28,452 bases of DNA from a virus (IMGVR_UViG_3300032182_000102:1-28452); one strand, 5' to 3'. Shown: positions 330 to 19,909, counted from the stretch's first letter. Program-made: numbers and translations. The notes: generated by a model not told the origin, from the letters alone.

Positions 330-500
330 TCAGAAGATGTCAGATTCAGTGATCTTTGCGTCACTGTTAGGGAAAGGAGGCATGATGGGACGTTGATTAA
401 CGTGGGCACATGCCAGTTCATAGAAGGGTGAGTCAGTCTTTCCTGCCTCTAGGAGGACTTGCTTAAGCCTGACCCAACGTTGGTAAGTGGAGTTGTCCAT
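330..500 (-). CDS. Hidden small ORF, 56 aa, overlapping the thyX 3' end
   Basis: Reading the frame opened by the ATG at 500-498 gives an uninterrupted 56-codon ORF ending in TGA at 330-332. It overlaps the last 52 bases of thyX in a different frame and fills almost all of the space between thyX and the 66-aa gene. The protein begins MDNSTYQRWVRLKQ, has a central AGKTDSPFYELACAHV segment and ends NSDAKITESDIF. The composition is protein-like and balanced, not that of a shadow frame. The Trp-x-x-Leu-Lys ... Gly-Lys-Thr-Asp-Ser-x-Phe-Tyr pattern resembles, from memory, short cyanophage hypothetical proteins; no function is known to me. It could be translationally coupled to thyX. Confidence 0.7.
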   Translation of the reverse strand: MDNSTYQRWVRLKQVLLEAGKTDSPFYELACAHVNQRPIMPPFPNSDAKITESDIF

Positions 501-1126
501 TCCAAAGCACGCGAAATGATAGGAAATTGGTCAATAAAGATAGCCCTAGCCTTTTCTGCAATGGTTTTATGCTCTATCTGTGTGCCATTATCGGTACGCA
601 GATTGATATAATGAATCCAAGAACGAACAGTGCCGTTCATATACAGGCGTGTTGGGCAACTAAGTGGTAATACGTTACGGGCACACTCTTTAGCTACACC
701 TTGAGAGAGTAGCTCATGATAAAGATCCTCAGACTCAGCATAGAGATGCGCTATACGGCGATAGAACATCTGTGTATGTTCTTTGTCTAGGTCATCATGA
801 CTAGCCTGACGGTTCTTATTGTCTTGTCTACGCAGTTGAGGCAGCTTAAGGTTGCCTAGTTCTAGTGTAGAAGCGTAGCGTTGGCTAAACTCTTGAAAGG
901 TAAAGCTACGGTGCCGTAGGATTTGAGGAGATATTGCCCTAGTTGTATTAATCTCTAACACCATATTAGCCATCTCGAAGATAGACCAGTGTTGATTTCT
1001 AATACAATAAGACAACAGCCGATCCACGGTCTCGTGGTTCTGTTGATTAGCAGGATTACTTACTCTTGCACAATAAGCAATAGTCTCTTCTGCCTTTGGT
1101 GTAACGGAGATTAGTGAAACAGACAT
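449..1126 (-). CDS. thyX: Flavin-dependent thymidylate synthase ThyX
   Basis: ThyX makes dTMP from dUMP using methylenetetrahydrofolate, with FAD and NADPH, supplying thymidylate for phage DNA synthesis in the cytoplasm. The protein is 225 aa from the ATG at 1126, the usual family length. The signature RHRx7S is present as RHRSFTFQEFSQRY at about residues 71-84. A second conserved block, INLRTDNGTQIEHK, lies at about 174-187 and corresponds to the substrate-binding LR...Q.E region of the family. I chose the ATG at 1126 because the protein then starts MSVSLISVTP. An upstream in-frame TTG at 1144 would add only six residues. It lies downstream of terL across a 330-base structured gap, so it may be the first gene of the left, early end if the genome terminus lies in that gap. 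Its own promoter may be in the AT-rich repeats at 1150-1169. Confidence 0.95.
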   Translation of the reverse strand: MSVSLISVTPKAEETIAYCARVSNPANQQNHETVDRLLSYCIRNQHWSIFEMANMVLEINTTRAISPQILRHRSFTFQEFSQRYASTLELGNLKLPQLRRQDNKNRQASHDDLDKEHTQMFYRRIAHLYAESEDLYHELLSQGVAKECARNVLPLSCPTRLYMNGTVRSWIHYINLRTDNGTQIEHKTIAEKARAIFIDQFPIISRALEWTTPLTNVGSGLSKSS

Positions 1127-1149
1127 TAAAGAAGAAATAGACAATACTA

Positions 1150-4668: not shown

Positions 4669-4986
4669 TTAAACAGTTGTCCAGGAAAGAACTTTGAAGA
4701 AATTTTCAGTCGAAAAAGATTCTTGACCGACCCACCAGCTAAGCCAGTGGGACGATCCTTTGCTTTGATTGCATTTCACACAAGCGCACACTACGTTATT
4801 TGTAATGTCGTGACCTCCTTTTGCTTTAGGATGAACGTGATCTAAGGTTAGACAGTCTGTGGATCCGCAATAAACACACCGGTTGCCCCAGTGTTCTTTG
4901 ATTGCAGCACGCCACATACGTTTCGCTTCAGCAGAAGTCATAGCTTGAAGGAAGTAAAGGTATTCGGAAGGGGCTTTGAGAGGCAT
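4669..4986 (-). CDS. HNH endonuclease, 105 aa
   Basis: This is a small metal-dependent DNA nuclease of the HNH / beta-beta-alpha-metal family. Structural Cys pairs are RCVYCG at about 36-41 (Cys37, Cys40) and CVKCNQSKG at about 69-77 (Cys69, Cys72). The catalytic core is LTLDHVHPKAKGGHD at about 46-60 with His50, then NN (63-64) and N73 plus K76. The N-terminal ~30 residues are helical. HNH proteins beside terminase genes assist packaging cleavage in HK97-type phages. Free-standing HNH homing endonucleases are also common in phages. T7 has none at this site. The tight two-base spacing to the next gene suggests an integrated operon member rather than a recent invasion. Confidence 0.93.
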   Translation of the reverse strand: MPLKAPSEYLYFLQAMTSAEAKRMWRAAIKEHWGNRCVYCGSTDCLTLDHVHPKAKGGHDITNNVVCACVKCNQSKGSSHWLSWWVGQESFSTENFFKVLSWTTV

Positions 4987-6107: not shown

Positions 6108-6679
6108 TAATCGTTACTATTCATCAAGTTGATCAGTTTTTGTGCATAGACCGGATCAGTGGCATAACCTTCAGACTTCAACAGAAGCGCACATTCTTCT
6201 CGTGTTGAAGCCCGGTTGACACCTTGATAACCACGATAGTCTTTATACCACTGTGTCACCAGATGATTAACACAGTCGTAAGGCGTGGCAAAGTCTTGGA
6301 ACTCATCAACAATAGTCACAGGACCATTGCCGTAGTCTTCCCAAGTTGTCTTTTTAGTGCCAGGACCTTTAATACCAAAGTAATTATTCTTGCCACTCAG
6401 AGCGGAACCCCACGCGGATTCGAGCGCCCATTGAGCAGCAACGCATTCAGGAAACTTAGCGCCTGCAGCTGTTGCGGCTGCTTTGATTCCGTCCCAAGTG
6501 TTTTCAATCACGTCGGGGCTTGAGACGGACTCTGAGGCGGTGCTACGCCAGAGTTGGATCCACTCGGCGTCATCAGATAAAAGAGCAGGCTCCAGAGCGG
6601 ACTCCAGAGCCTGGATGGCTTTCTTCTGATGATCTAGTCCTTTGTAGTGCTTGACTACATCCAGAAGAGAAATGGTCAT
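6107..6679 (-). CDS. Endolysin, GH73 N-acetylglucosaminidase family
   Basis: It cleaves the glycan strands of peptidoglycan at lysis, acting in the periplasm once the holin opens the inner membrane. The 190-aa protein has a ~70-residue N-terminal helical region (LLDVVKHYKGLDHQKKAIQ) and a glucosaminidase domain from about 76. The catalytic segment AAQWALESAWG (Glu87) is followed by SGKNNYFGIKG (95-105). Later conserved parts are VDEFQDFATPYDCVNHLVTQ (124-143), YRGYQGV and SEGYATDPVYAQKLINLM (169-186), all as in bacterial Glucosaminidase (PF01832) proteins. There is no signal peptide, so export must be holin-dependent. T7 uses an amidase in an early gene (3.5); here the lysin is in the late fibre region. 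The ATG overlaps the upstream TGA. Confidence 0.9.
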   Translation of the reverse strand: MTISLLDVVKHYKGLDHQKKAIQALESALEPALLSDDAEWIQLWRSTASESVSSPDVIENTWDGIKAAATAAGAKFPECVAAQWALESAWGSALSGKNNYFGIKGPGTKKTTWEDYGNGPVTIVDEFQDFATPYDCVNHLVTQWYKDYRGYQGVNRASTREECALLLKSEGYATDPVYAQKLINLMNSND

Positions 6680-6867
6680 GATTCAGAAGGAGGTAATTGC
6701 TTTTGAGCTTCTTCGGGGAACAGGCCGTTTTTAATAAATTCTACAGCCTTGTCATCCAAGGTATTGTCCGTGGCTTGGGCAATTTTGGACAGCACCTTAA
6801 CAATTAGGCGCTTAACGTGAACAGAACCGAGAAAAGAGAACAGGATTGGACGAATGATTTCAAGCAT
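6676..6867 (-). CDS. Small hydrophobic-N-terminal protein, 63 aa, possible lysis protein
   Basis: I start it at the ATG at 6867, two bases after the upstream TAA (TAATCATG, the junction used repeatedly here). An earlier ATG at 6885 would overlap that gene. The N-terminus MLEIIRPILFSFLGSVHVKR then LIVKVLSKIAQ is hydrophobic and amphipathic. The rest is soluble (TDNTLDDKAVEFIKNGLFPE). It lies immediately before the endolysin with an ATGA overlap. The membrane-active N-terminus and neighbour suggest a holin or antiholin role, but the hydrophobic stretch is short for a sure transmembrane helix. Function is not established. Confidence 0.65.
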   Translation of the reverse strand: MLEIIRPILFSFLGSVHVKRLIVKVLSKIAQATDNTLDDKAVEFIKNGLFPEEAQKQLPPSES

Positions 6868-6869
6868 GA

Positions 6870-7415
6870 TTAACCACAGAAACAATCGTAATCAACGGAG
6901 CAATCCTCTTGCTCCACAATGAACATGGACTCAGGTTTATCTGGCCATGCGGGTTGAGATGCTTCAACAGCACCCATAGCTCCTACATAGTTGTAGAGAT
7001 CATCAACACTGGTTTTGTCGTTAATATCGGTTTCGCGCTGGGTAAACGTAGTACGCACTGCAGCACGATAGGTTGCAACTTCAGCAGGAACAGCATCGCC
7101 GCCTTCAGCTGCTTGAATGACATACCAGTCACACTCTGCCAACAGACGGAGCATTTTGGTTTTGTTGTCTTTGATAAGTCTGGCTTTTACTGATGCAAGA
7201 GAGTGAGGTTGTTTAATCCAGGTACCATCAACATTAATACCTTGAGTATCATAAAACGTATTACTTGGTTCTATTTCTACAGGGGTAATAAAAGTAAAAT
7301 TTAGTGAGTCAAGCAATTCAGGTGTAACTAAACTTCCTGGATATTTGATGCCTGCTAAAACAAAACCATTACCTACTCTTGCTTTAGTGCCACTTTCTGT
7401 GTGAACGTAAAACAT
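6870..7415 (-). CDS. Fibre companion protein (tail-fibre assembly-like), 181 aa
   Basis: It follows the fibre gene at 7418-9019 by two bases. The region at about residues 88-141 aligns with the companion of the previous fibre (9022-9393). Both share 'DW-VI----E-G-A-P-----YR---R-T---R---I', here read as DWYVIQAAEGGDAVPAEVAT then YRAAVRTTFTQRETDI. This Asp-Trp ... Tyr-Arg pattern is typical of tail-fibre assembly chaperones. The ~85-residue N-terminal part is extra (GTKARVGNGFVLAGIKYPG, TFITPVEIEPSNTFYDTQG) and could be a virion-binding module. The C-terminus is acidic with three Cys. Its role as fibre chaperone or small fibre subunit is inferred from pairing and motif. Confidence 0.7.
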   Translation of the reverse strand: MFYVHTESGTKARVGNGFVLAGIKYPGSLVTPELLDSLNFTFITPVEIEPSNTFYDTQGINVDGTWIKQPHSLASVKARLIKDNKTKMLRLLAECDWYVIQAAEGGDAVPAEVATYRAAVRTTFTQRETDINDKTSVDDLYNYVGAMGAVEASQPAWPDKPESMFIVEQEDCSVDYDCFCG

Positions 7416-7417
7416 AA

Positions 7418-9019
7418 TTAAGTATAAGGTATAATCATAGGAAGTGAGTTACCACCACCAGTAAAATTACTGCACTGGCCATGTTGGTGAGAAGGGAAAA
7501 GTTTCCAACCACTTGTGTTTACGGTAAGACCGCTTGGCCCTGAAATAGTAGTCCAGCTAGGAGTAGCAACGTTTAGACCTGCGCTAGCCATCCACCGAAA
7601 ACTTCCGTCCTGCATAGCAACAAGATTCTGCTGACCATAACCACCAGCATGAATAGGTGTTGCAACATCATCAAGAATTTTACGGAACGCATGGTTTTGG
7701 GTTACAAGGTATAAATGACCATCTTTACCTTTCATGCTGAAACCAGAAGAATTTGCTCCACCAACCCCGTTTCCGAAAACAGAAACTTCTTCAATAGCTG
7801 TAAAACCAGTTGGATTGTATTGAACAGGGCTTGCAAGTGTGCCAGAACTAGAAATACCAGTTACAGTGCCGCCAGGATTACCAACAGTGTAAATGTTTCC
7901 ACTATCAGTCAAAAAACCCACACAAAGAGGTTGAACAGAGCCACCATAATAGATACCGAAGATCTGCTTAACTTTTTCTCCAGATGGAAGCGTAGGGGTT
8001 ACATCTTGCCAAGCATTAAGAGGGCTACCAGTCCAAGTATTTGTACCGTAATACCAAGTATTAACAATTTTACGGTCTCCAGCTGAGTTCTCAATTAACG
8101 CATAAGCTGTGTTTGAGCAAAAACCGGTATTCATTAGAGCTAAACACTCATAACCTGGGTAAGTGGATGACATATAAGTCATAGAACCTTGGTTATTCTG
8201 TGTGCCTTGAGCAACATCATTATTTGTAACCAGATGTGCAGCAAAACGATCTTGACCTACACCATGAGCATTAGTATTGTTAGACAGCGCTATATTTCTA
8301 ACACCGCCGGCAAGTGCAGCCGTAGACCCAAAGTAGCTAGTAATATCAGAGTTAGCATTAGATAGATAATTATTAGAACTAGCACTTTGCCATACCTTAT
8401 AATCCTCACTTATAACATAAAAGTAACTATTAGGACCAGCATTGGTATTACGAACATTAGTGGTTGTACTACCATTAACTGTCATAGATAACCAACCAGA
8501 AGTACTGTTGTAGTAGTAAAGTCTACCGACAGTACCATCATAAATTTCAGCGGCAATGGTTTTAGCAGCTGATGTCGAACTAGCAGTTAACGCTGTAGGG
8601 GTTGTACTATCTGCAACATTAACAACACAACGTAATTGACCATCAGTAGTGTTGTCGCTTCCAATTTGTGCAGGAACCGTGTAAGTTTGGCTAGTAGCTC
8701 CACTAATGTTAGAAAAACTAGATCCACCGTTTACTTGAAACTGCCACTGGTAAGTAAATGTGTAAGGAGTAGTGCCTGAAAGTACAGTAGGGTTAGTACA
8801 AGTAGTAACTTGACCAACTTGTGCGTCACTAATTGATGCATCAGCGCTAACAATTAAGTTAACAGCTGTCGCCCAAGTAGTAACACCGTTTGCACCTACC
8901 TGAAGAAACTGACCAGCAGTACCAATACTGTTTGGCAATGTAAGGCTTACATCGCTTGTAAGAGACGGAGCGGATAGTTCAACGTGATTACCGCCACCGT
9001 CATTGAGTCTAAGTCCCAT
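7418..9019 (-). CDS. Fibre/adhesin with Ig-like module and RCC1-like repeats, 533 aa
   Basis: This is a probable receptor-binding appendage. The first ~50 residues (MGLRLN ... SLTLPNSIGTAGQFLQVGAN GVTTWAT) are the short leader seen on many phage fibres. An Ig-like module at about 53-140 carries the classic Cys74, Trp92 (YQWQF) and Cys131 (LRCVV). The remaining ~380 residues contain propeller-like strands, most clearly TDSGNIYTVGNPGG (371-384), KGKDGHLYLVTQNHAFRKI and VAMQDGSFRWMASAG, as in RCC1 repeats. It is a paralogue of the 531-aa protein at 9396-10991: the first 131 residues align without gaps, while the distal part has diverged, as expected for host-range evolution. A good Shine-Dalgarno GGAGG lies upstream of the ATG. 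A non-fibre capsid appendage such as the Syn5 horn is an alternative. Confidence 0.8.
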   Translation of the reverse strand: MGLRLNDGGGNHVELSAPSLTSDVSLTLPNSIGTAGQFLQVGANGVTTWATAVNLIVSADASISDAQVGQVTTCTNPTVLSGTTPYTFTYQWQFQVNGGSSFSNISGATSQTYTVPAQIGSDNTTDGQLRCVVNVADSTTPTALTASSTSAAKTIAAEIYDGTVGRLYYYNSTSGWLSMTVNGSTTTNVRNTNAGPNSYFYVISEDYKVWQSASSNNYLSNANSDITSYFGSTAALAGGVRNIALSNNTNAHGVGQDRFAAHLVTNNDVAQGTQNNQGSMTYMSSTYPGYECLALMNTGFCSNTAYALIENSAGDRKIVNTWYYGTNTWTGSPLNAWQDVTPTLPSGEKVKQIFGIYYGGSVQPLCVGFLTDSGNIYTVGNPGGTVTGISSSGTLASPVQYNPTGFTAIEEVSVFGNGVGGANSSGFSMKGKDGHLYLVTQNHAFRKILDDVATPIHAGGYGQQNLVAMQDGSFRWMASAGLNVATPSWTTISGPSGLTVNTSGWKLFPSHQHGQCSNFTGGGNSLPMIIPYT

Positions 9020-9021
9020 AT

Positions 9022-9393
9022 TTAAGCCTCCAATGAATTTGATTGATCAGGCAACAACCAAATATCTAAAGATCCTGGGTTGCCAATGACTAACCCATCA
9101 TCAGCTTGCTGTGTTTGTGGAGTTAGTAGTAATGTTTTTAATGCGTCCAAATCAGCACACGCATTAATTTTTTCTTTTCTGAGATTACCGGTTGCTCGAA
9201 TAAGTGTCCGATAGTCGCTAATGTTTGTAGGAATTGCAGTTCCTGTTTCTTGAAGACGAATAACTGTCCAATCAGTTGGACTAAGGAGCTGGTATTGAAT
9301 GTCTTGATCTTCCTTCAATAACACAGCTTTAGCTTCTTCAAGAGTAAAAACGCCTTCAATGACGCTGTTAATAGTGTTAAAGTTAAAGTCCAT
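9022..9393 (-). CDS. Fibre companion protein (tail-fibre assembly-like), 123 aa
   Basis: It lies between two paralogous fibre genes with two-base gaps on each side. The core SPTDWTVIRLQETGTAIPTN then ISDYRTLIRATGNLRKEKI shares the DW-VI----E-G-A-P-----YR---R-T pattern with the companion at 6870-7415. The N-terminus is short (FNFNTINSVIEGVFTLEEAK) and the C-terminus ends in a hydrophobic-acidic tail (SLDIWLLPDQSNSLEA). The motif is typical of phage tail-fibre assembly or chaperone proteins. It may help fold or attach the fibre encoded just upstream. Confidence 0.7.
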   Translation of the reverse strand: MDFNFNTINSVIEGVFTLEEAKAVLLKEDQDIQYQLLSPTDWTVIRLQETGTAIPTNISDYRTLIRATGNLRKEKINACADLDALKTLLLTPQTQQADDGLVIGNPGSLDIWLLPDQSNSLEA

Positions 9394-9395
9394 AA

Positions 9396-10991
9396 TTATT
9401 GAGGTAATACAAATCCAGTCCAGTCTCCAGAATAATCAGACATTACAATATATTGTCCACCGTGAGTCATCAGTGAAGAATTCCAAGTTGGAAATCCTGA
9501 AGGCAAAGTCCAAGTGTTATGGATAGTAGTAGCTTGTGGTCCATTAGTGGTAGAAATCAACGTGTTATTTTCCCCTACTGCAAACATATCTAAAGGATTA
9601 TAGGTGCAGCAGTTGTCAATATACGGAAAATGTTGACCTTGCAAACTTTTAAAAACAGTGCCTGAAAAATGAGCTTCAAACGTATCGCTATTATTTGCCA
9701 AAACTTGCCAATACTGTCCATCGGCTGTAATAGCTTGTAGGCCATAATCATAATTTGGCGCAACATTACTAAAAGCAGCAATCTGTTCAAACTTTTGTGT
9801 AACTGAGGTTACAAGTGCAGGTGCGCTGCGAGTACCATTAGTCGGAAATCCTGCAATGTTTGGGTTACCAACAGTGTACAATCTTTGATCATTACATAGC
9901 AACACAAGTCCAGCTGGGGTAGCCAAGTGTGCAGCTGCTACATAGCAGATTTTTTTTCCAGTTGGAGGTGTAATATACACATCCATAAAATTGTAACTAG
10001 TAGTTTGAGTGTTAGTACCACCATCTAAAATGTAATAAGACCTAGTACCACTTGCAGACGAGTATCGAACATACCCATCTTCAGTTACAACAATAGGAGG
10101 CAGAATCATCTCACTGCTGTTGTGCCACAATACTTTAGAAAAACCAGAAGTAGTAGTTAGCCATTCATCGGGCCAACTAGAACCACTGTTTGTTGTAGCA
10201 CGAGCTTCTCCAGTGGTAGAGATTTGAGTTGTAGCAGTGGATGATGAAGCTTGAAGGCCAGCAATTAATTTACCGGACCATGTTTCCTGGGCTCCAGTTA
10301 AAAGCGATGGTGTTGTTGAACCTGTTGATTGCCTATTCATTTGATAGACAGTGCCAGCATCACTGATAATTTTCCAGTTTGTATTAGCGTTGTTGTTTCC
10401 TGTAATTGCTACAGCTTTTTCATTGTTTGGCAATGGGTGCCAACCAACACTACTTGCAACTCCACCTGATCCAGTATTGACATTCCACTGCATAGCAATG
10501 CCAGCAGGAGAGTGCATGTTAGGTCTAAATTCAATAGTAGTAAGCTCGTTACTATTAATAACTAACTGAGAGTTGTCAGCATCGGTTACTGTAACTGCAC
10601 AACGCAGTGTGCCATTTTCAGCAGAATTACCGTTAATAGTAGCGGTAATAGAGTAAGTTGTAGAAGTTTCACCGGAGATGTTAGCGAAACTAGAACCACC
10701 ACTTTCCTTAAATTGCCATTGATAGGCAAATGTATAAGGTTTAGTACCACCTAAAATAGAAGGATTAGTGACGGTACTGTCTGAGCCAATAATACGTCCA
10801 TCGATAACTGGATCAGTTTGAGCGATCAACAAGACAACCGTTTGAAAACTTAGTTGCCCGGTAGCATCTACTTGTAAAAACTGACCATCACTACCGTTAG
10901 ATGAAGGCAACGTAAGTGTGTTGTTAGCAGGTGTGGCACCGGCTGACAGTTCTGTATAACCGGATGTTGATCCGTTAATTCTAATTCCCAT
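9396..10991 (-). CDS. Fibre/adhesin with Ig-like module and RCC1-like repeats, 531 aa
   Basis: Paralogue of the 533-aa protein at 7418-9019. The N-terminal leader (LSAGATPANN, TLTLPSSNGSDGQFLQVDAT) and Ig-like module (AYQWQF with Trp92, SSFANISGETSTTYSI, LRCAV with Cys131) align residue for residue. The first Ig Cys is replaced, so no disulphide pair is expected. The distal part carries RCC1-like segments: CNDQRLYTVGNPNIAGFPTN followed by GTRSAPALVTSVTQKFEQI, then ITADGQYWQVLANN. It has no catalytic motif. The start overlaps the upstream TAA by one base (TAATG), with GGAGG in the upstream gene end. Likely role: receptor binding or virion surface appendage. Divergence is concentrated after residue ~145. 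Confidence 0.8.
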   Translation of the reverse strand: MGIRINGSTSGYTELSAGATPANNTLTLPSSNGSDGQFLQVDATGQLSFQTVVLLIAQTDPVIDGRIIGSDSTVTNPSILGGTKPYTFAYQWQFKESGGSSFANISGETSTTYSITATINGNSAENGTLRCAVTVTDADNSQLVINSNELTTIEFRPNMHSPAGIAMQWNVNTGSGGVASSVGWHPLPNNEKAVAITGNNNANTNWKIISDAGTVYQMNRQSTGSTTPSLLTGAQETWSGKLIAGLQASSSTATTQISTTGEARATTNSGSSWPDEWLTTTSGFSKVLWHNSSEMILPPIVVTEDGYVRYSSASGTRSYYILDGGTNTQTTSYNFMDVYITPPTGKKICYVAAAHLATPAGLVLLCNDQRLYTVGNPNIAGFPTNGTRSAPALVTSVTQKFEQIAAFSNVAPNYDYGLQAITADGQYWQVLANNSDTFEAHFSGTVFKSLQGQHFPYIDNCCTYNPLDMFAVGENNTLISTTNGPQATTIHNTWTLPSGFPTWNSSLMTHGGQYIVMSDYSGDWTGFVLPQ

Positions 10992-11329
10992 TATTCAACC
11001 TCCGGTTTTGGATATTTAGTTTTGACTGCATCACAGGCTGCGACATAAGCGGTCATTTTTGTATCGTCACCTTTTTGTGACCAGTAATAAGCATCAGCAA
11101 AGTCTGCAAGAGAAGGGTATTCAGGTTGACGATCGCGTTGATATTGTTTGGAGTTGTATGCAGCTTCTAATTCTTGAGCCTTAGCAACTGCAGCGTCACG
11201 ATCAAAAACAACTGGATTTTCTGGATCAGAGCTTTTAACTACAAAGTCGTCGTAAGTAGTAGCTGTTACTTGAAAGCCCTCGCCGTTGCCAAGTTCAGAA
11301 ATTGCCTCACAAAGGAAAAATTGAATCAT
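10991..11329 (-). CDS. Fibre companion protein, 112 aa
   Basis: It follows the 217-aa fibre gene with an ATGA overlap. The C-terminal half, EYPSLADFADAYYWSQKGDD then TKMTAYVAACDAVKTKYPKP, is a pattern I know from small proteins encoded next to phage fibre genes (YPS--D--DA-YW--KGD---M--Y-------KYPKP). The N-terminal half is a compact domain (FFLCEAISELGNGEGFQVTA, SSDPENPVVFDRDAAVAKAQ). It differs from the DW...YR companions further downstream, so the three companion proteins are not all one family. A chaperone or fibre-accessory role is inferred. Confidence 0.7.
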   Translation of the reverse strand: MIQFFLCEAISELGNGEGFQVTATTYDDFVVKSSDPENPVVFDRDAAVAKAQELEAAYNSKQYQRDRQPEYPSLADFADAYYWSQKGDDTKMTAYVAACDAVKTKYPKPEVE

Positions 11330-11979
11330 GGTGCCATCTCCATAAAAACAATAGGTGATACGCAGGTAGATGTATAACCATTTGTCTGTCTTGGCACATT
11401 CAAAGACATTTGGCCTTGATTACATAAGTGGTGCTCGTAAGTAATTACATCACCAGCTGTGTGGCCAGGTGTATCTAAAAATGAATATACAAAACGATCA
11501 CCTTCGTTTGGTGTATTGCCTCTAAAATTACCAAACACACCAGTATTAGTGCTAGCTAAAGGGCTTGAATTTACTAAAAGTTCAACAGCTGGACCACTAC
11601 CAATTTTTCTATACAACTTAAATGTTGCATCATAAGAAGAAGCTGAGATAAGCAGAGCCCAGTTAAAACTTACATAAATTGAGCCAGCAACAGTTGTTGT
11701 GTAAGTAACATCCATTTCTGGAAAACGTGCAAAACTGTTTGCCGATCGCGCAGCAAAATTAGCTTTACTGTCAATAATCGTTTGAGCAACATTGACAAGT
11801 TTTCCGCCAGTGCCAGCAGGCAAGGTAACTGTTTTACTAGAAAAATCTAGTGTTGTAGCAAGCTTACCATCTGTAATAGTAGTATTTGCAATGTCATCAT
11901 TAACAATGACACCATTAGGCAATCCACCTGCACTAATGCCGGTGATTGTACCGGCGGATCCATTAATTGTAATAGCCAT
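11326..11979 (-). CDS. Short fibre / receptor-binding protein, 217 aa
   Basis: The N-terminus is MAITINGSAGTITGISAGGL then IVNDDIANTTITDGKL, a beta-strand leader common on cyanophage and other fibre proteins. The following LDFSSKTVTLPAGT is similar to the leader of the longer paralogues. The distal ~140 residues look like an all-beta jelly-roll head: TTTVAGSIYVSFNWALLISA, DATFKLYRKIGSGPAVELLV, GDRFVYSFLDTPGHTAGDVI. It ends in VFMEMAP, a typical fibre-head terminus. It lacks the Ig and RCC1 parts of its two neighbours. It starts two bases after the T7-type fibre stop. Confidence 0.75.
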   Translation of the reverse strand: MAITINGSAGTITGISAGGLPNGVIVNDDIANTTITDGKLATTLDFSSKTVTLPAGTGGKLVNVAQTIIDSKANFAARSANSFARFPEMDVTYTTTVAGSIYVSFNWALLISASSYDATFKLYRKIGSGPAVELLVNSSPLASTNTGVFGNFRGNTPNEGDRFVYSFLDTPGHTAGDVITYEHHLCNQGQMSLNVPRQTNGYTSTCVSPIVFMEMAP

Positions 11980-11981
11980 AA

Positions 11982-13193
11982 TTAAACAATCACCCAGTTT
12001 GAAGTTGAAGGTACGGTTACAACTACTGGTGTGACTCCATCCGCTTCAAAAGCATTTTGAGTGATAGGTCCAGCAGTAATTACGTTTTTGCCAGCACCGA
12101 TTGTGTAACTTGTAGTGATCGTGCTGTCGTGCTCATAAAACACTTGGTCAGTACCACCACCAGAAGCACCACCTGCAGTACCCCAAGACAATTCGCCATT
12201 TTGGTTACCTATCAAAGCATAACCATTTTGCGTAGGTGCAGTGACAGGAAGTTGAAGGGTGTATGCAACAGAATTAAGAGTATGTGGCGGACTCTTAATT
12301 GTAATTCCGTGGTTGTTGTTATCACAATTTAGGGTGATTTGACCAGGATCATTACCTATGCCAGTACCTTTGAAGGTAGTTGCAGTAGCACTAAACGTAC
12401 CTTGCAGCTCGATGTTGGTGTCCATCTTGGCAGATGTAATCGTGCCGTTATCGATGGTCCAAGTGCCACCACTGTTGCTTACAGTGATGTCTCCACGGTC
12501 GCCGTCAGCAATACCAGAAACAGCAACGCCGTCAACATACGCTTTGGTTGCCGCATCACCAGTATCTGTAGGAGTGCCAAGCCCAGTGACTTTGCTACCA
12601 CCCATGGCGATAGGGCCAGTCATCGTGCCACCAGCAAGGTCTAGCTTGAGCTGGTCAGCAGAATCAACGTAAGTCTTGGTGGCTGCGTGATTGTTAGCGG
12701 TTGGGTTACCAGACAGGGTAAGCAAACCCGTCATGGTGTCACCAGCCTTGGCTACTTTCAGATCTGCATAGTCCTTAGTAGCGGCATCCGTACCTGCTGT
12801 CGGAGTGCCAAGGTTGATGATTTTGTTGGAACTCATGTCCAACGTACCGGATAGCGTACCACCCGTGGAGTCCAAAGAACGCTCTTCACGCTCTTGGGCA
12901 GAGTACACCAGTTGCAGGTTGTTGTTGTTCAGGTCCTGTGCGCGGATAGCAGAACCCGAAACAAACGTAGCTTGAGGCGAGCTAATGTCCGTATCACGGA
13001 AGATACGAATCGTTTGACCAGAGGTGGGAAACGGAGCTACCGTAAAGCGAATCTGGGTGTCGTTATCAAAAGAGAAGTCGGTGGTTACAACCTCATCAAC
13101 AGACACCTTGATGTCAGTACGCTCAAGGTATGGGAAAGTAATTGAAAAAGGGCCGGCCGTACCGTTACCCGGAATAGTAGTGTCAGTTGCCAT
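11982..13193 (-). CDS. Tail fibre protein, T7 gp17-like, 403 aa
   Basis: This fibre attaches to the tail tube and contacts the host. The N-terminal ~125 residues are the T7 tail-fibre domain (PF03906): PGNGTAGPFSITFPYLERTD, FSFDNDTQIRFTVAP, QTIRIFRDTDIS, AIRAQDLNNNNLQLVYSAQE. The shaft has degenerate repeats of GGTMTGPI-MGG-KV-GLGTP followed by DAATK-YVD at about 112-225, as in fibres of other phages. The end carries the leader-like LPVTAPTQNGYALIGNQNGE LSWGT and a short C-terminal cap. At 403 aa (T7 gp17 is 553) it has no large receptor-binding head, so the three fibre-like proteins downstream probably supply the adhesive parts. No Shine-Dalgarno sequence is evident. Confidence 0.92.
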   Translation of the reverse strand: MATDTTIPGNGTAGPFSITFPYLERTDIKVSVDEVVTTDFSFDNDTQIRFTVAPFPTSGQTIRIFRDTDISSPQATFVSGSAIRAQDLNNNNLQLVYSAQEREERSLDSTGGTLSGTLDMSSNKIINLGTPTAGTDAATKDYADLKVAKAGDTMTGLLTLSGNPTANNHAATKTYVDSADQLKLDLAGGTMTGPIAMGGSKVTGLGTPTDTGDAATKAYVDGVAVSGIADGDRGDITVSNSGGTWTIDNGTITSAKMDTNIELQGTFSATATTFKGTGIGNDPGQITLNCDNNNHGITIKSPPHTLNSVAYTLQLPVTAPTQNGYALIGNQNGELSWGTAGGASGGGTDQVFYEHDSTITTSYTIGAGKNVITAGPITQNAFEADGVTPVVVTVPSTSNWVIV

Positions 13194-17275: not shown

Positions 17276-17300
17276 AAAAAGAGGGCCAGCGCACCAGCCC
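17276..17300 (-). terminator. Terminator/attenuator between gp15-like and gp16-like genes
   Basis: On the minus strand GGGCTGG and CTGGCCC form a 7-bp stem (two G-U wobbles) with a TGCG tetraloop at 17283-17300. TCTTTTT follows immediately. The stem begins at the last base of the gp15-like stop codon. Since no promoter is evident before the gp16-like gene, partial read-through is the likely mode. Confidence 0.65.
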
Positions 17301-19909
17301 TACCTACCTCTACGAAGAGCTACAAGAGCTCGTTGTGCATCAGGTAAAAATTCTCGGTACTTTCCGCTCTTATAAACGGACCAAGCATTAAATCCCTGTT
17401 GCTTGAAAATATAACGCATAGCCATGGCGTTAATAGTTGGATCAGTGAGTTGATCATTAGAGATCAGACCCAGGGCTGCTCTACGCTCAGGACCCATATC
17501 ACCCAACATATTAATCTGCCACAACCCATAGGAATCATCACCAGTTGAAGCATCATCGTTGTGAGCTTCTGGATCGCCACTAGACTCAGCAAGAGCAATG
17601 GCTAAAAGCTTAACAGCATCTCTGTCGTTGAAGCCTTGGTTGAAAGCTAGCTGTAGAATCTCTGTATCGCCCATTGGCGTGATTAAGCCTCTGGGCGTTT
17701 CTACTTTGAATGTGCCGGCCTCCTTTGCAGCAAGTCGTTCAGAACGTTGTTGAGCTTGTGCCACTCCTGCTGCACCTGCTGCCTGTGACAACTCATCATC
17801 AGAGTTGTAGAGACGATTAGCTGCACCAGGAGCCAGCCGCATCGCTGTGCCTTCACGCTCTGCAGCTTCTTTAAGATAGGGGGTGGGATTGATGCCATAG
17901 TGTTCTGCTTGCAGTTTCAGAAAGGTGGCCATTGGCATGTGTGCTGGCTTGATTCGTGGATCACGAGCCCTGCCAGTCAGTTGCTGATTATCGCGGAACC
18001 TTTCTAAATTAGCTTTGACTTCGTTCTCTGTCAACAGAATGCTATTCTCTGGATGATCGTAACGATTGTCTAAATCTTCGATACGGACATTACTATTATC
18101 GTAAACAGGCTCACCATCAGAGTTCTTACGAATCGTCATGGCTGTTTTAGGGTTATTACGAGGCTTTCCTTTAGAAGTGTAATACTCTAAAAAGACTCGT
18201 TTAGAGATTTTTTCTAACTCTTTAGACAGCTCATCCTGTGTTGGATAAACACCCTTAGTGTTTTTGTACTGTTCTCTATATTCAAACAGCTGATCTTCAA
18301 CTGCTTGTTGATAAGCATAATAAGCCTCAGGATTTTGGCTTGGTTTACCAGTAATATCAAAGGAAACCTCACCAGCCTCAGCCAATACTTGCTGAGTAGA
18401 GTCCCTTACTTGCCTACCATAAATCTTTTCATATTCTATACGTTCCCTATCAGCTGCTTGCTTACGCAAGTTTTCTTTCAAACTTTCAGGGATATTTAAC
18501 GACTCAATCATCTCAAGCGTCATGTCATCCCGAGTAAGAGCTGTATTGTAAATAGCATACTCTTTAGGCGTAGTTTTATCAATCGCTACATCAGCTAAAA
18601 AGTTTCTAGCTTCTGCATTATCATATTGAGAAATACGCTCAAGCAGCACCTTTTGTTCTTGCTCTAGCTGAGTTGAATCAGTTACTGTATTTTGTAAATA
18701 CTTATATTGAGCAATCAGATCATTAACTTCACGAGCTTCTTGCTGGCGAATATACGATTGCTCTTGACGCCTCGTTTGGCGAATCCTGGCGCGTGCTGCG
18801 CGGAATTGATCCGCATTAAGCTTGCCTAGAGTGCCACTCTTAGGATCGCCTTCAATTTTCGTAAGCCGTTCTAAACGCTGCAATGCAGCTTCCGCTTCTT
18901 CTGGAGGTAGAGATTCCGCAGACGAAATCATACCTTCTAGTGCCAGCCTAGCGGCTTTACCTTTACTAAGACCAGCCAGTGTTTGCAAGTCTTTAACTGC
19001 CTGCTGATAGGTATTGCCTAGCTCTTGATCTGTAATGTTCTCAGTAGTTGCAGCAACCCTAAGACCACTAAGAATGTTATATTCGTTGGTCTCACGCTCG
19101 TTAGCAATAACTTGACTAACAGTGTTGGATTTGATCTGTGACTTTGCGGCCTGGAATGTAGGGGCAAAGTTTTCAGCCAAAACAACAGGGTTGAGACGAG
19201 AGATACCCCGAGACTCAAACAGTTCTTCTGAGCCTACAGCCAGAGCTGCTTCAATCTCGTACTCGTCACCAGACTGAGCAATCTCTGCTGGTGATTTTAA
19301 GCCTTGAGGTGTTGGGACAATTTTGTCCGTCCGTGTCATAAAGGAGGTAAGGAAAGGCTGAACCTCAAGGGCTGCCTTCTTTGCCATACCAACCGCACGA
19401 CCATAAGCACGCCAACCTGAAACAGCTGGGCTGCTCTTACGGATCTGCAGGCTAAGCTCTTTGTTGCCCTGTTCTTCTAAACTGTTAGCAACCTCACCGT
19501 CAGCTTCGGCTGCGTTAGCAAGCACCTCAGCTTCTTTCTTGTGTTCGGCATAAACAGACTCAGGGAACTGAGCACGTCCGTTCATGATTTCCGCAAGGCC
19601 AGCATTGTATTCTGCTTTGTTGCGACGCTCGGTACGGTCTTCTAAATCTTTCTGAAGGGTAGAGCTAAACTTTGCTAACGCATCTAGGGTCTGCTGACCA
19701 CGCTCTTCAAACTGCGAACCAATCTGTTGCAGCTGGTCACGGTACTGTTGTTCAGACCGGTTCAGCTGTTTGCCATAGTCAGCAGCAGCACGTTCACGCT
19801 TACGGGCAGCAGAGTCTTCTTGTTGTTGAATTTGAGAGGAAGGATCATAAGCCGTAGCAGCCTTAAAGCCTCTAGGACCTTGATACCCAGTAAGTTGAAT
19901 GTCTGCCAT
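17300..19909 (-). CDS. Internal virion protein, gp15-like with C-terminal lytic transglycosylase, 869 aa
   Basis: A core protein ejected with the DNA that also opens the peptidoglycan. The N-terminal ~150 residues form a charged coiled coil (SAARKRERAAADYGKQLNRS, QQYRDQLQQIGSQFEERGQQ). The middle is helical, like T7 gp15 (747 aa). The last ~110 residues are an SLT-type lytic transglycosylase: LLAIALAESSGDPEA with the catalytic Glu at about 775, then SYGLWQINML at about 794-803 and a C-terminal YIFKQQGFNAWSVYKSGKY. In T7 this activity sits at the N-terminus of gp16, so the enzyme has moved to the neighbouring core protein. The start is the ATG at 19909, overlapping the upstream stop as TAATG. 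Confidence 0.9.
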   Translation of the reverse strand: MADIQLTGYQGPRGFKAATAYDPSSQIQQQEDSAARKRERAAADYGKQLNRSEQQYRDQLQQIGSQFEERGQQTLDALAKFSSTLQKDLEDRTERRNKAEYNAGLAEIMNGRAQFPESVYAEHKKEAEVLANAAEADGEVANSLEEQGNKELSLQIRKSSPAVSGWRAYGRAVGMAKKAALEVQPFLTSFMTRTDKIVPTPQGLKSPAEIAQSGDEYEIEAALAVGSEELFESRGISRLNPVVLAENFAPTFQAAKSQIKSNTVSQVIANERETNEYNILSGLRVAATTENITDQELGNTYQQAVKDLQTLAGLSKGKAARLALEGMISSAESLPPEEAEAALQRLERLTKIEGDPKSGTLGKLNADQFRAARARIRQTRRQEQSYIRQQEAREVNDLIAQYKYLQNTVTDSTQLEQEQKVLLERISQYDNAEARNFLADVAIDKTTPKEYAIYNTALTRDDMTLEMIESLNIPESLKENLRKQAADRERIEYEKIYGRQVRDSTQQVLAEAGEVSFDITGKPSQNPEAYYAYQQAVEDQLFEYREQYKNTKGVYPTQDELSKELEKISKRVFLEYYTSKGKPRNNPKTAMTIRKNSDGEPVYDNSNVRIEDLDNRYDHPENSILLTENEVKANLERFRDNQQLTGRARDPRIKPAHMPMATFLKLQAEHYGINPTPYLKEAAEREGTAMRLAPGAANRLYNSDDELSQAAGAAGVAQAQQRSERLAAKEAGTFKVETPRGLITPMGDTEILQLAFNQGFNDRDAVKLLAIALAESSGDPEAHNDDASTGDDSYGLWQINMLGDMGPERRAALGLISNDQLTDPTINAMAMRYIFKQQGFNAWSVYKSGKYREFLPDAQRALVALRRGR

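What the first reader, a model, noticed from the sequence alone, without database searches (positions are those of the whole stretch)
6870..11979. Three consecutive fibre + companion cassettes downstream of the T7-type fibre
The order is fibre 217 aa / companion 112 aa, fibre 531 aa / companion 123 aa, fibre 533 aa / companion 181 aa. All are spaced by two bases or overlap by one to four. Two companions share a DW-VI----E-G-A-P-----YR---R-T motif. This looks like duplication of a fibre-plus-chaperone unit followed by divergence, giving one podovirus several adhesins. The gp17-like protein itself is short and lacks a large head, so adhesion may be delegated to these cassettes.
Basis: partly seen in the sequence, partly recalled or inferred. 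Interest (0 to 1): 0.7.

Follow-up and report, generated by a model that had tools for sequence, protein, structure and literature searches.

The report
Marine phage multi-fibre array with chaperones
Behind its main tail fibre this marine T7-like virus carries three genes for probable host-gripping fibres, each followed by a likely folding helper; the same arrangement recurs in many other marine phages, so it is a new example of a known kind, unusual mainly in two large fibre heads that have no known relatives.

Summary
In detail: three fibre-like/companion pairs lie head to tail behind the gp17-type fibre, all junctions between -4 and +2 nt. Cassettes 2 and 3 are paralogous (fibre N-termini 49% identical, heads weakly but significantly related, companions 33% identical). 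Cassette 1 is unrelated to them in head and companion: one related pair plus an independent cassette. The set matches a recurrent marine-phage array: carrier fibre ending in a conserved tip, 2 nt, short fibre + companion, fibre with a conserved N-module + companion. It occurs in at least ten other contigs; cultured P-SSP7 and S-SBP1 carry partial versions. The chaperone reading is well supported by inference. Companions 2/3 resemble 'tail fiber assembly' families. Companion 1's family (PHROG 'unknown') shares interchangeable N-domains with PF16778 chaperones; across 108 pairs its N-domain, not its C-terminal hairpin, co-varies with the fibre head, as the solved Pam3 gp24-gp25 complex predicts. 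Peculiar here: two ~390-residue heads without detectable relatives, and a companion 2 lacking the N-domain seen in 80 other family members. Binding, attachment site and chaperone activity are untested.

The parts
11982..13193 (-). gp17-type carrier fibre, 403 aa, with T7 fibre docking domain and C-terminal common tip module (last ~50 aa)
   Evidence: PF03906 5.6e-21; tip profile without window rows 6.8e-22
11326..11979 (-). F1, short fibre 217 aa with conserved N-module and variable head
   Evidence: F1N profile without window rows 4e-15; no relative of the whole protein in the phage collection; neighbourhood
10991..11329 (-). C1, companion 112 aa: variable N-domain plus YQRxRxxEYP...KYPKP helical hairpin; probable fibre chaperone
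   Evidence: phrog_9114 1.2e-13; AF2 model pLDDT 87.6 with helical C-part; co-variation and domain exchange in its family
9396..10991 (-). F2, fibre 531 aa: F2-type N-module, probable Ig-like segment, ~390 aa head without detectable relatives besides F3
   Evidence: F2N profile without window rows 1.7e-18; F3 paralogy; no database relatives
9022..9393 (-). C2, companion 123 aa, helical DW...YR part only; N-domain absent
   Evidence: phrog_4912 tail fiber assembly 7.2e-5; DW motif at residue 35, all 80 other family members at 80 or later
7418..9019 (-). F3, fibre 533 aa, paralogue of F2
   Evidence: 49% identity over first 138 aa, heads z 6.7; F2N profile without window rows 1.5e-10; residues 75-117 ZirU-family profile 3.5e-6, below its cut-off
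6870..7415 (-). C3, companion 181 aa, N-domain plus DW...YR helical part; probable fibre chaperone
   Evidence: phrog_4912 tail fiber assembly 1.8e-6; PF16778 0.0065, below cut-off

Best explanation
The stretch is the host-recognition array of a marine T7-like phage. The gp17-type fibre docks to the tail through its PF03906 domain and ends in a common tip rather than a specific head (shown by sequence). The variable adhesive parts are separate downstream genes F1, F2 and F3, with conserved short N-modules (probably attachment, inferred) and variable heads (probably receptor binding, inferred). Each is followed by its own small chaperone, probably translated in step with it. By analogy with Pam3 gp24-gp25, the companion's variable N-domain would hold the fibre head during assembly while its conserved helical domain trimerises; the companion then leaves or caps the fibre. 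F2-C2 and F3-C3 are related cassettes, probably from an old duplication followed by head divergence; F1-C1 is an independent cassette.
For: Same order and N-modules in at least ten other contigs; cultured P-SSP7 and S-SBP1 have tip fibre plus further short fibres. C2/C3 match 'tail fiber assembly' families. C1-type N-domains occur fused to PF16778 hairpins. In 108 pairs the C1-type N-domain co-varies with the fibre head (0.29, p 0.001) and the hairpin does not (-0.06), with shuffle and length controls. 88/94 and 74/74 companions sit directly behind an ORF of at least 80 aa. F2/F3 and C2/C3 homology. Pam3 gp25 (PMC9608196) and V22 gp27 (PMC7289586) show the mechanism in other phages.
Against: No experiment. 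The F2/F3 heads have no recognisable fold. C2 lacks the N-domain that the model needs. C1's predicted fold has no significant match among solved structures. In the C2/C3 family N- and C-part co-vary with the head equally. P-SSP7 has four short fibres but only one recognised C1-type companion. The mirror correlation is moderate and the within-locus swap control too small.
Confidence: 0.78

Rival explanations
1. F1, F2 and F3 are not independent adhesins but successive segments of one long composite fibre: the gp17 tip carries F1, which carries F2, and so on, as T4 gp34-35-36-37 stack; each companion helps one segment.
For: Fixed gene order tip, F1N, F2N across contigs and conserved N-modules in fixed positions; F1 lies exactly 2 nt behind the tip gene in most cases.
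Against: Array length and the type of the third fibre vary between contigs; F2 and F3 carry the same N-module, which fits parallel better than serial attachment; each fibre has its own variable head.
Confidence: 0.2
2. The companions are structural accessory proteins that stay on the fibre as tips or caps and take part in binding, like Mu Tfa or S16 gp38, rather than chaperones that leave.
For: PMC10579305 proposes a cap function for homologous-type chaperones and cites TfaMu as remaining bound; co-variation with the head fits any stable contact.
Against: Pam3 gp25 is absent from virions (PMC9608196) and V22 gp27 is not in the final complex (PMC7289586); the helical conserved part fits assembly.
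Confidence: 0.2
3. The small genes have nothing to do with the fibres; they are unrelated late genes that happen to lie between them.
For: C1's PHROG families are listed as unknown function and its predicted fold has no good match among solved structures.
Against: Neighbourhood with fibre-like ORFs across phage groups, co-variation with the head, exchange of N-domains with PF16778 chaperones, chaperone-family matches for C2/C3.
Confidence: 0.05

Closest known systems
Pam3 gp24-gp25 fibre/chaperone pair (PDB 7YPX, PMC9608196)
   Same: Fibre gene with its chaperone; variable N-domain that binds the head plus conserved helical trimerising domain, the pattern seen here in the C1 family
   Different: One fibre and one chaperone in a myocyanophage; no sequence match of our companion profiles to it in the PDB set; three cassettes here
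Alteromonas phages V22 gp26-gp27, A5 gp8-gp9, P24 gp44-gp45 (PMC7289586, PMC10579305)
   Same: Marine fibre-chaperone pairs in modules shared between podo-, myo- and siphoviruses
   Different: Their chaperones carry DUF4376 (V22, A5), not found in the window companions by Pfam; one fibre-chaperone pair each
Cyanophage P-SSP7 gp36-gp41 (NC_006882)
   Same: T7-like gp17 with the same tip, then F1-type fibre gp37, further short fibres, C1-type companion gp40
   Different: Four short fibres with a single recognised companion; no F2/F3-type heads or C2/C3-type companions
Synechococcus phage S-SBP1 gp40-gp44
   Same: Tip-bearing fibre followed after 2 nt by several fibre genes, one with an F2-type N-module
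   Different: No recognised companion of either family; other heads
Marine metaviromic islands (PMC3909814)
   Same: Tail fibres, C1q-like heads, XkdW proteins and tail fibre assembly proteins listed together among variable genes
   Different: XkdW given as function unknown there; no cassette or chaperone model

Membership tests
T7-type tail fibre (gp17) | PF03906 N-terminal docking domain | tested here: met
   gp17 75.3 bits against cut-off 25.2; F1, F2, F3 have no such match
PF16778 Phage_tail_APC | Score above the curated cut-off (26.6 bits) | tested here: not met
   C3 16.7 bits, C2 and C1 no match; companions in comparable arrays do meet it (55-61 bits)
phrog_4912 tail fiber assembly | Significant profile match | tested here: met
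   C3 1.8e-6, C2 7.2e-5, partial stretch only; 41 of 50 family members match
PF09636 XkdW | Score above the curated cut-off | tested here: not met
   C1 no match; 6 of 64 relatives match at E up to 0.01
phrog_9114 (unknown function) | Significant profile match | tested here: met
   C1 1.2e-13; 63 of 64 relatives match
Intermolecular tail fibre chaperone (functional class) | Gene directly behind its fibre gene | tested here: met
   All three here; 88/94 and 74/74 relatives
Intermolecular tail fibre chaperone (functional class) | Variable N-domain matched to the fibre head, conserved helical C-domain | tested here: inconclusive
   Fits for the C1 family; not separable for the C2/C3 family; C2 lacks the N-domain
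Intermolecular tail fibre chaperone (functional class) | Fold like Pam3 gp25 or TfaMu | tested here: inconclusive
   C1 model has an N-part and a helical C-part, but Foldseek and VIA-align gave no significant match; C2 and C3 were not modelled
Intermolecular tail fibre chaperone (functional class) | Fibre needs the companion to fold or bind | not testable with these tools
   Needs co-expression

The most novel reading that the evidence does not exclude
Marine phages use a general plug-in system: any short fibre with a standard N-module plus its own mix-and-match chaperone (head-specific N-domain, exchangeable trimerising hairpin) can be slotted behind any carrier fibre that ends in the common tip, whatever the tail type, so that one virion displays several adhesins at once. 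PHROG families 9114/2687/8886 and the XkdW domain would then be chaperone parts of this system.
Probability: 0.35. Interest if true: 0.65.

Novelty: new variant of a known kind. Interest (0 to 1): 0.42.

Why it matters
Genes of this kind probably set which cells a marine phage can attach to, yet most are annotated 'hypothetical'. If the chaperone reading holds, a large set of unknown-function families (phrog_9114, 2687, 8886 and the XkdW domain) gains a function, and the companion becomes a marker that flags adhesin genes in metagenomic phages even when their heads have no relatives, as here.

Tried and rejected
1) Three copies of one unit: rejected for cassette 1 (no similarity of F1 head or C1 to the others). 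2) C2 and C3 as each other's closest relatives: the free tree separates them, but the clade is not rejected (p-AU 0.56), so left open. 3) RCC1-type beta-propeller in the F2/F3 heads, suggested by 'YTVGNP'-like strings: no RCC1_2 match up to E 10, no Pfam match, no significant internal repeats; not supported. 4) AF2 model of F2 with a two-row alignment: pLDDT 36, not used for fold search. 5) Fold search with C1: only weak matches, best Z 3.4 to prefoldin, not interpreted. 6) Profile-profile link between the C1 and C2/C3 families: none. 7) Relatives of the F2/F3 heads: none in viral contigs or the phage collection; one relative of the Ig-like segment only. 8) 'gp17 is short, hence delegation': carrier length varies from 189 to 1505 aa in comparable arrays.

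Full report
WHAT IS THERE. The window is a 28.5 kb virus fragment of a T7-like marine phage: terminase (NF033889, 1.4e-170), head-tail adaptor, major head protein and tail protein, and a gp16-like protein whose best relatives are in cyanophages such as S-CBP42, SS120-1, P60, Syn5 and P-SSP7. On the minus strand the order is gp16, gp17 (403 aa, PF03906), F1 (217), C1 (112), F2 (531), C2 (123), F3 (533), C3 (181), a 69 aa ORF, and an endolysin (PF01832, 1.3e-20). All junctions from gp17 to C3 lie between a 4-nt overlap and a 2-nt gap. F2, F3 and C1 have a GGAG-type ribosome site in the 22 bases before their start; F1, C2 and C3 show none. Translational coupling of C2 and C3 to their fibres is therefore likely but inferred.

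ARE THE CASSETTES COPIES? F2 and F3 are paralogues: 49% identity over the first 138 aa (E 8e-36), and their ~390 aa heads align with a score that none of 500 shuffles reached (z 6.7). C2 and C3 are homologous (33% over 80 aa; z 19). F1's head shows no similarity to F2 or F3 (z 0.3-0.9), and C1 none to C2 or C3 (z 0.3 and 1.4; 47 of 500 shuffles reach the latter). Whether C2 and C3 are sisters could not be settled: the free tree of 73 sequences separates them, while a test on 33 sequences does not reject the clade (p-AU 0.56). So there is one related pair of cassettes and one independent cassette.

THE SAME ARRAY ELSEWHERE. Relatives of C1 and of C2/C3 were collected from viral contigs. Small profiles were made for the gp17 tip, the F1 N-terminus and the F2 N-terminus. 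With the window's own rows left out they still find the window proteins (tip 6.8e-22, F1 4e-15, F2 1.7e-18, F3 1.5e-10). The order tip fibre, F1-type + C1-family companion, F2N-type + companion occurs in L175, L177, L178, L181, L192, L195, L198, L202, L204 and L022; some of these (L195/L198 for instance) may be close relatives of each other. L188 has another fibre and companion between its first pair and its F2N-type pair. Three consecutive pairs were counted in L181 (same contig as L018), L188, L192 and L193; L193 lacks the F1N and F2N modules. Of 22 unique F1N genes with upstream sequence, 17 follow a tip-bearing fibre, most often after exactly 2 nt. Loci were gathered mainly through the companion, so the companion behind F1 is partly ascertained, but the tip before F1 is not. 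Upstream genes differ: some contigs carry other tail genes before the carrier fibre (L016, L020), which suggests that the array moves between phage types. In cultured phages, P-SSP7 gp36 bears the tip, gp37 the F1 N-module and gp40 is a C1 homologue; S-SBP1 has a tip fibre followed after 2 nt by further fibre genes, one with an F2-type N-module. P-SSP7 was among the sequences used to build the C1-family profile, but not the tip or F1N profiles.

WHAT THE COMPANIONS ARE. C3 and C2 match phrog_4912 'tail fiber assembly' over a short stretch (1.8e-6 and 7.2e-5), as do 41 of 50 members of their family. PF16778 is only approached (C3, 16.7 bits against a cut-off of 26.6), so they are not filed as members of that Pfam family. 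C1 belongs to phrog_9114 and relatives, all 'unknown function'. Three lines point to a chaperone. First, neighbourhood: 88 of 94 C1-type and 74 of 74 C2/C3-type companions have a same-strand ORF of at least 80 aa immediately upstream. Second, domain exchange: the same N-domain occurs with either hairpin, for example L178:8764-9099 (PF16778-type hairpin) and L221:6143-6442 (C1-type hairpin), 79% identical over 47 aa. L028:3881-4207 has a C1-type N-domain and a PF16778 hairpin (5.6e-14), and L016:3899-4303 an XkdW N-domain (8.9e-10) with a PF16778 hairpin (2.3e-16). 6 of 17 PF16778/RYPYP-type companions share an N-domain with C1-type ones at E 1e-6. Third, co-variation: in 108 non-redundant C1-type pairs, N-domain similarity tracks fibre-head similarity (Spearman 0.29, p 0.001), hairpin similarity does not (-0.06, p 0.88); the partial correlation given the hairpin is 0.30, given N-domain length 0.26, and letter-shuffled N-domains give 0.02-0.07. 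A within-locus swap points the same way but is too small to count (0.095 against -0.095, n = 20). In the C2/C3 family the two parts are not separable (0.35 and 0.37).

HOW IT WORKS, MOST LIKELY. [quoted passage not shown] V22 gp27 is an essential chaperone of fibre gp26 and is not part of the final complex (PMC7289586). PMC10579305 adds a possible cap role and shows such modules shared by phages of podo-, myo- and siphoviral form. I infer that F1-F3 are trimeric adhesins assembled with C1-C3. Their N-modules probably attach them; for F1 the gp17 tip is the likeliest site, because it is the shared element upstream. Whether F2 and F3 sit beside F1 or stack on it is open. F3 residues 75-117 match a ZirU-family profile (3.5e-6, below its cut-off); with the 'YQWQF...GGSSF.NISG.TS.TY' pattern this suggests an Ig-like segment in both F2 and F3 (inference).

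WHAT IS PECULIAR. The F2/F3 heads have no detectable relatives in the phage collection or viral contigs, and their fold could not be predicted. C2 begins its conserved motif at residue 35, whereas the 80 other complete family members with that motif begin it at residue 80 or later: it lacks the N-domain. Only 2 nt separate F2 and C2, so no N-domain is hidden between them. Either F2 is served by the helical part alone, or by C3, or C2 is degenerate.

VERDICT. Observation confirmed; interpretation partly supported. The array is a recurrent marine-phage arrangement. The newer elements are the evidence that C1's unknown-function family is a modular fibre chaperone, and the related cassettes with orphan heads and one N-domain-less companion. 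Function is inferred throughout; no binding or assembly was tested.

Noticed in passing
window 6676-6885 (-): 69 aa ORF (TTG start, overlapping C3's end by 16 nt), phrog_2738 of unknown function (2.1e-20), just before the endolysin and beginning with a hydrophobic stretch; its place would suit a holin.
   Followed up: partly
window 4669-4986 (-): HNH endonuclease (phrog_2214, 4.5e-28) between the lysis genes and the terminase; P-SSP7 has an HNH gene in a similar place.
   Followed up: no
window 449-1144 (-): Thymidylate synthase (phrog_85, 1.6e-74) downstream of the terminase.
   Followed up: no
window 17300-19909 (-): An 869 aa ORF between the internal virion proteins without any PHROG match at E 0.001; by position an internal virion protein (gp15-like).
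   Followed up: no
L016:3899-4303, L064:2675-3004: The XkdW domain (PF09636, function unknown) occurs as N-domain of fibre companions, once joined to a PF16778 hairpin and once to a C1-type hairpin, which suggests that XkdW is a fibre-binding part of chaperones.
   Followed up: partly
L091:4196-4627: An RCC1-like repeat protein ('LFTWGANTLGQLGNGTTTPTSSPVQIG') follows a companion in another array, hinting that beta-propellers serve as heads in such arrays.
   Followed up: no
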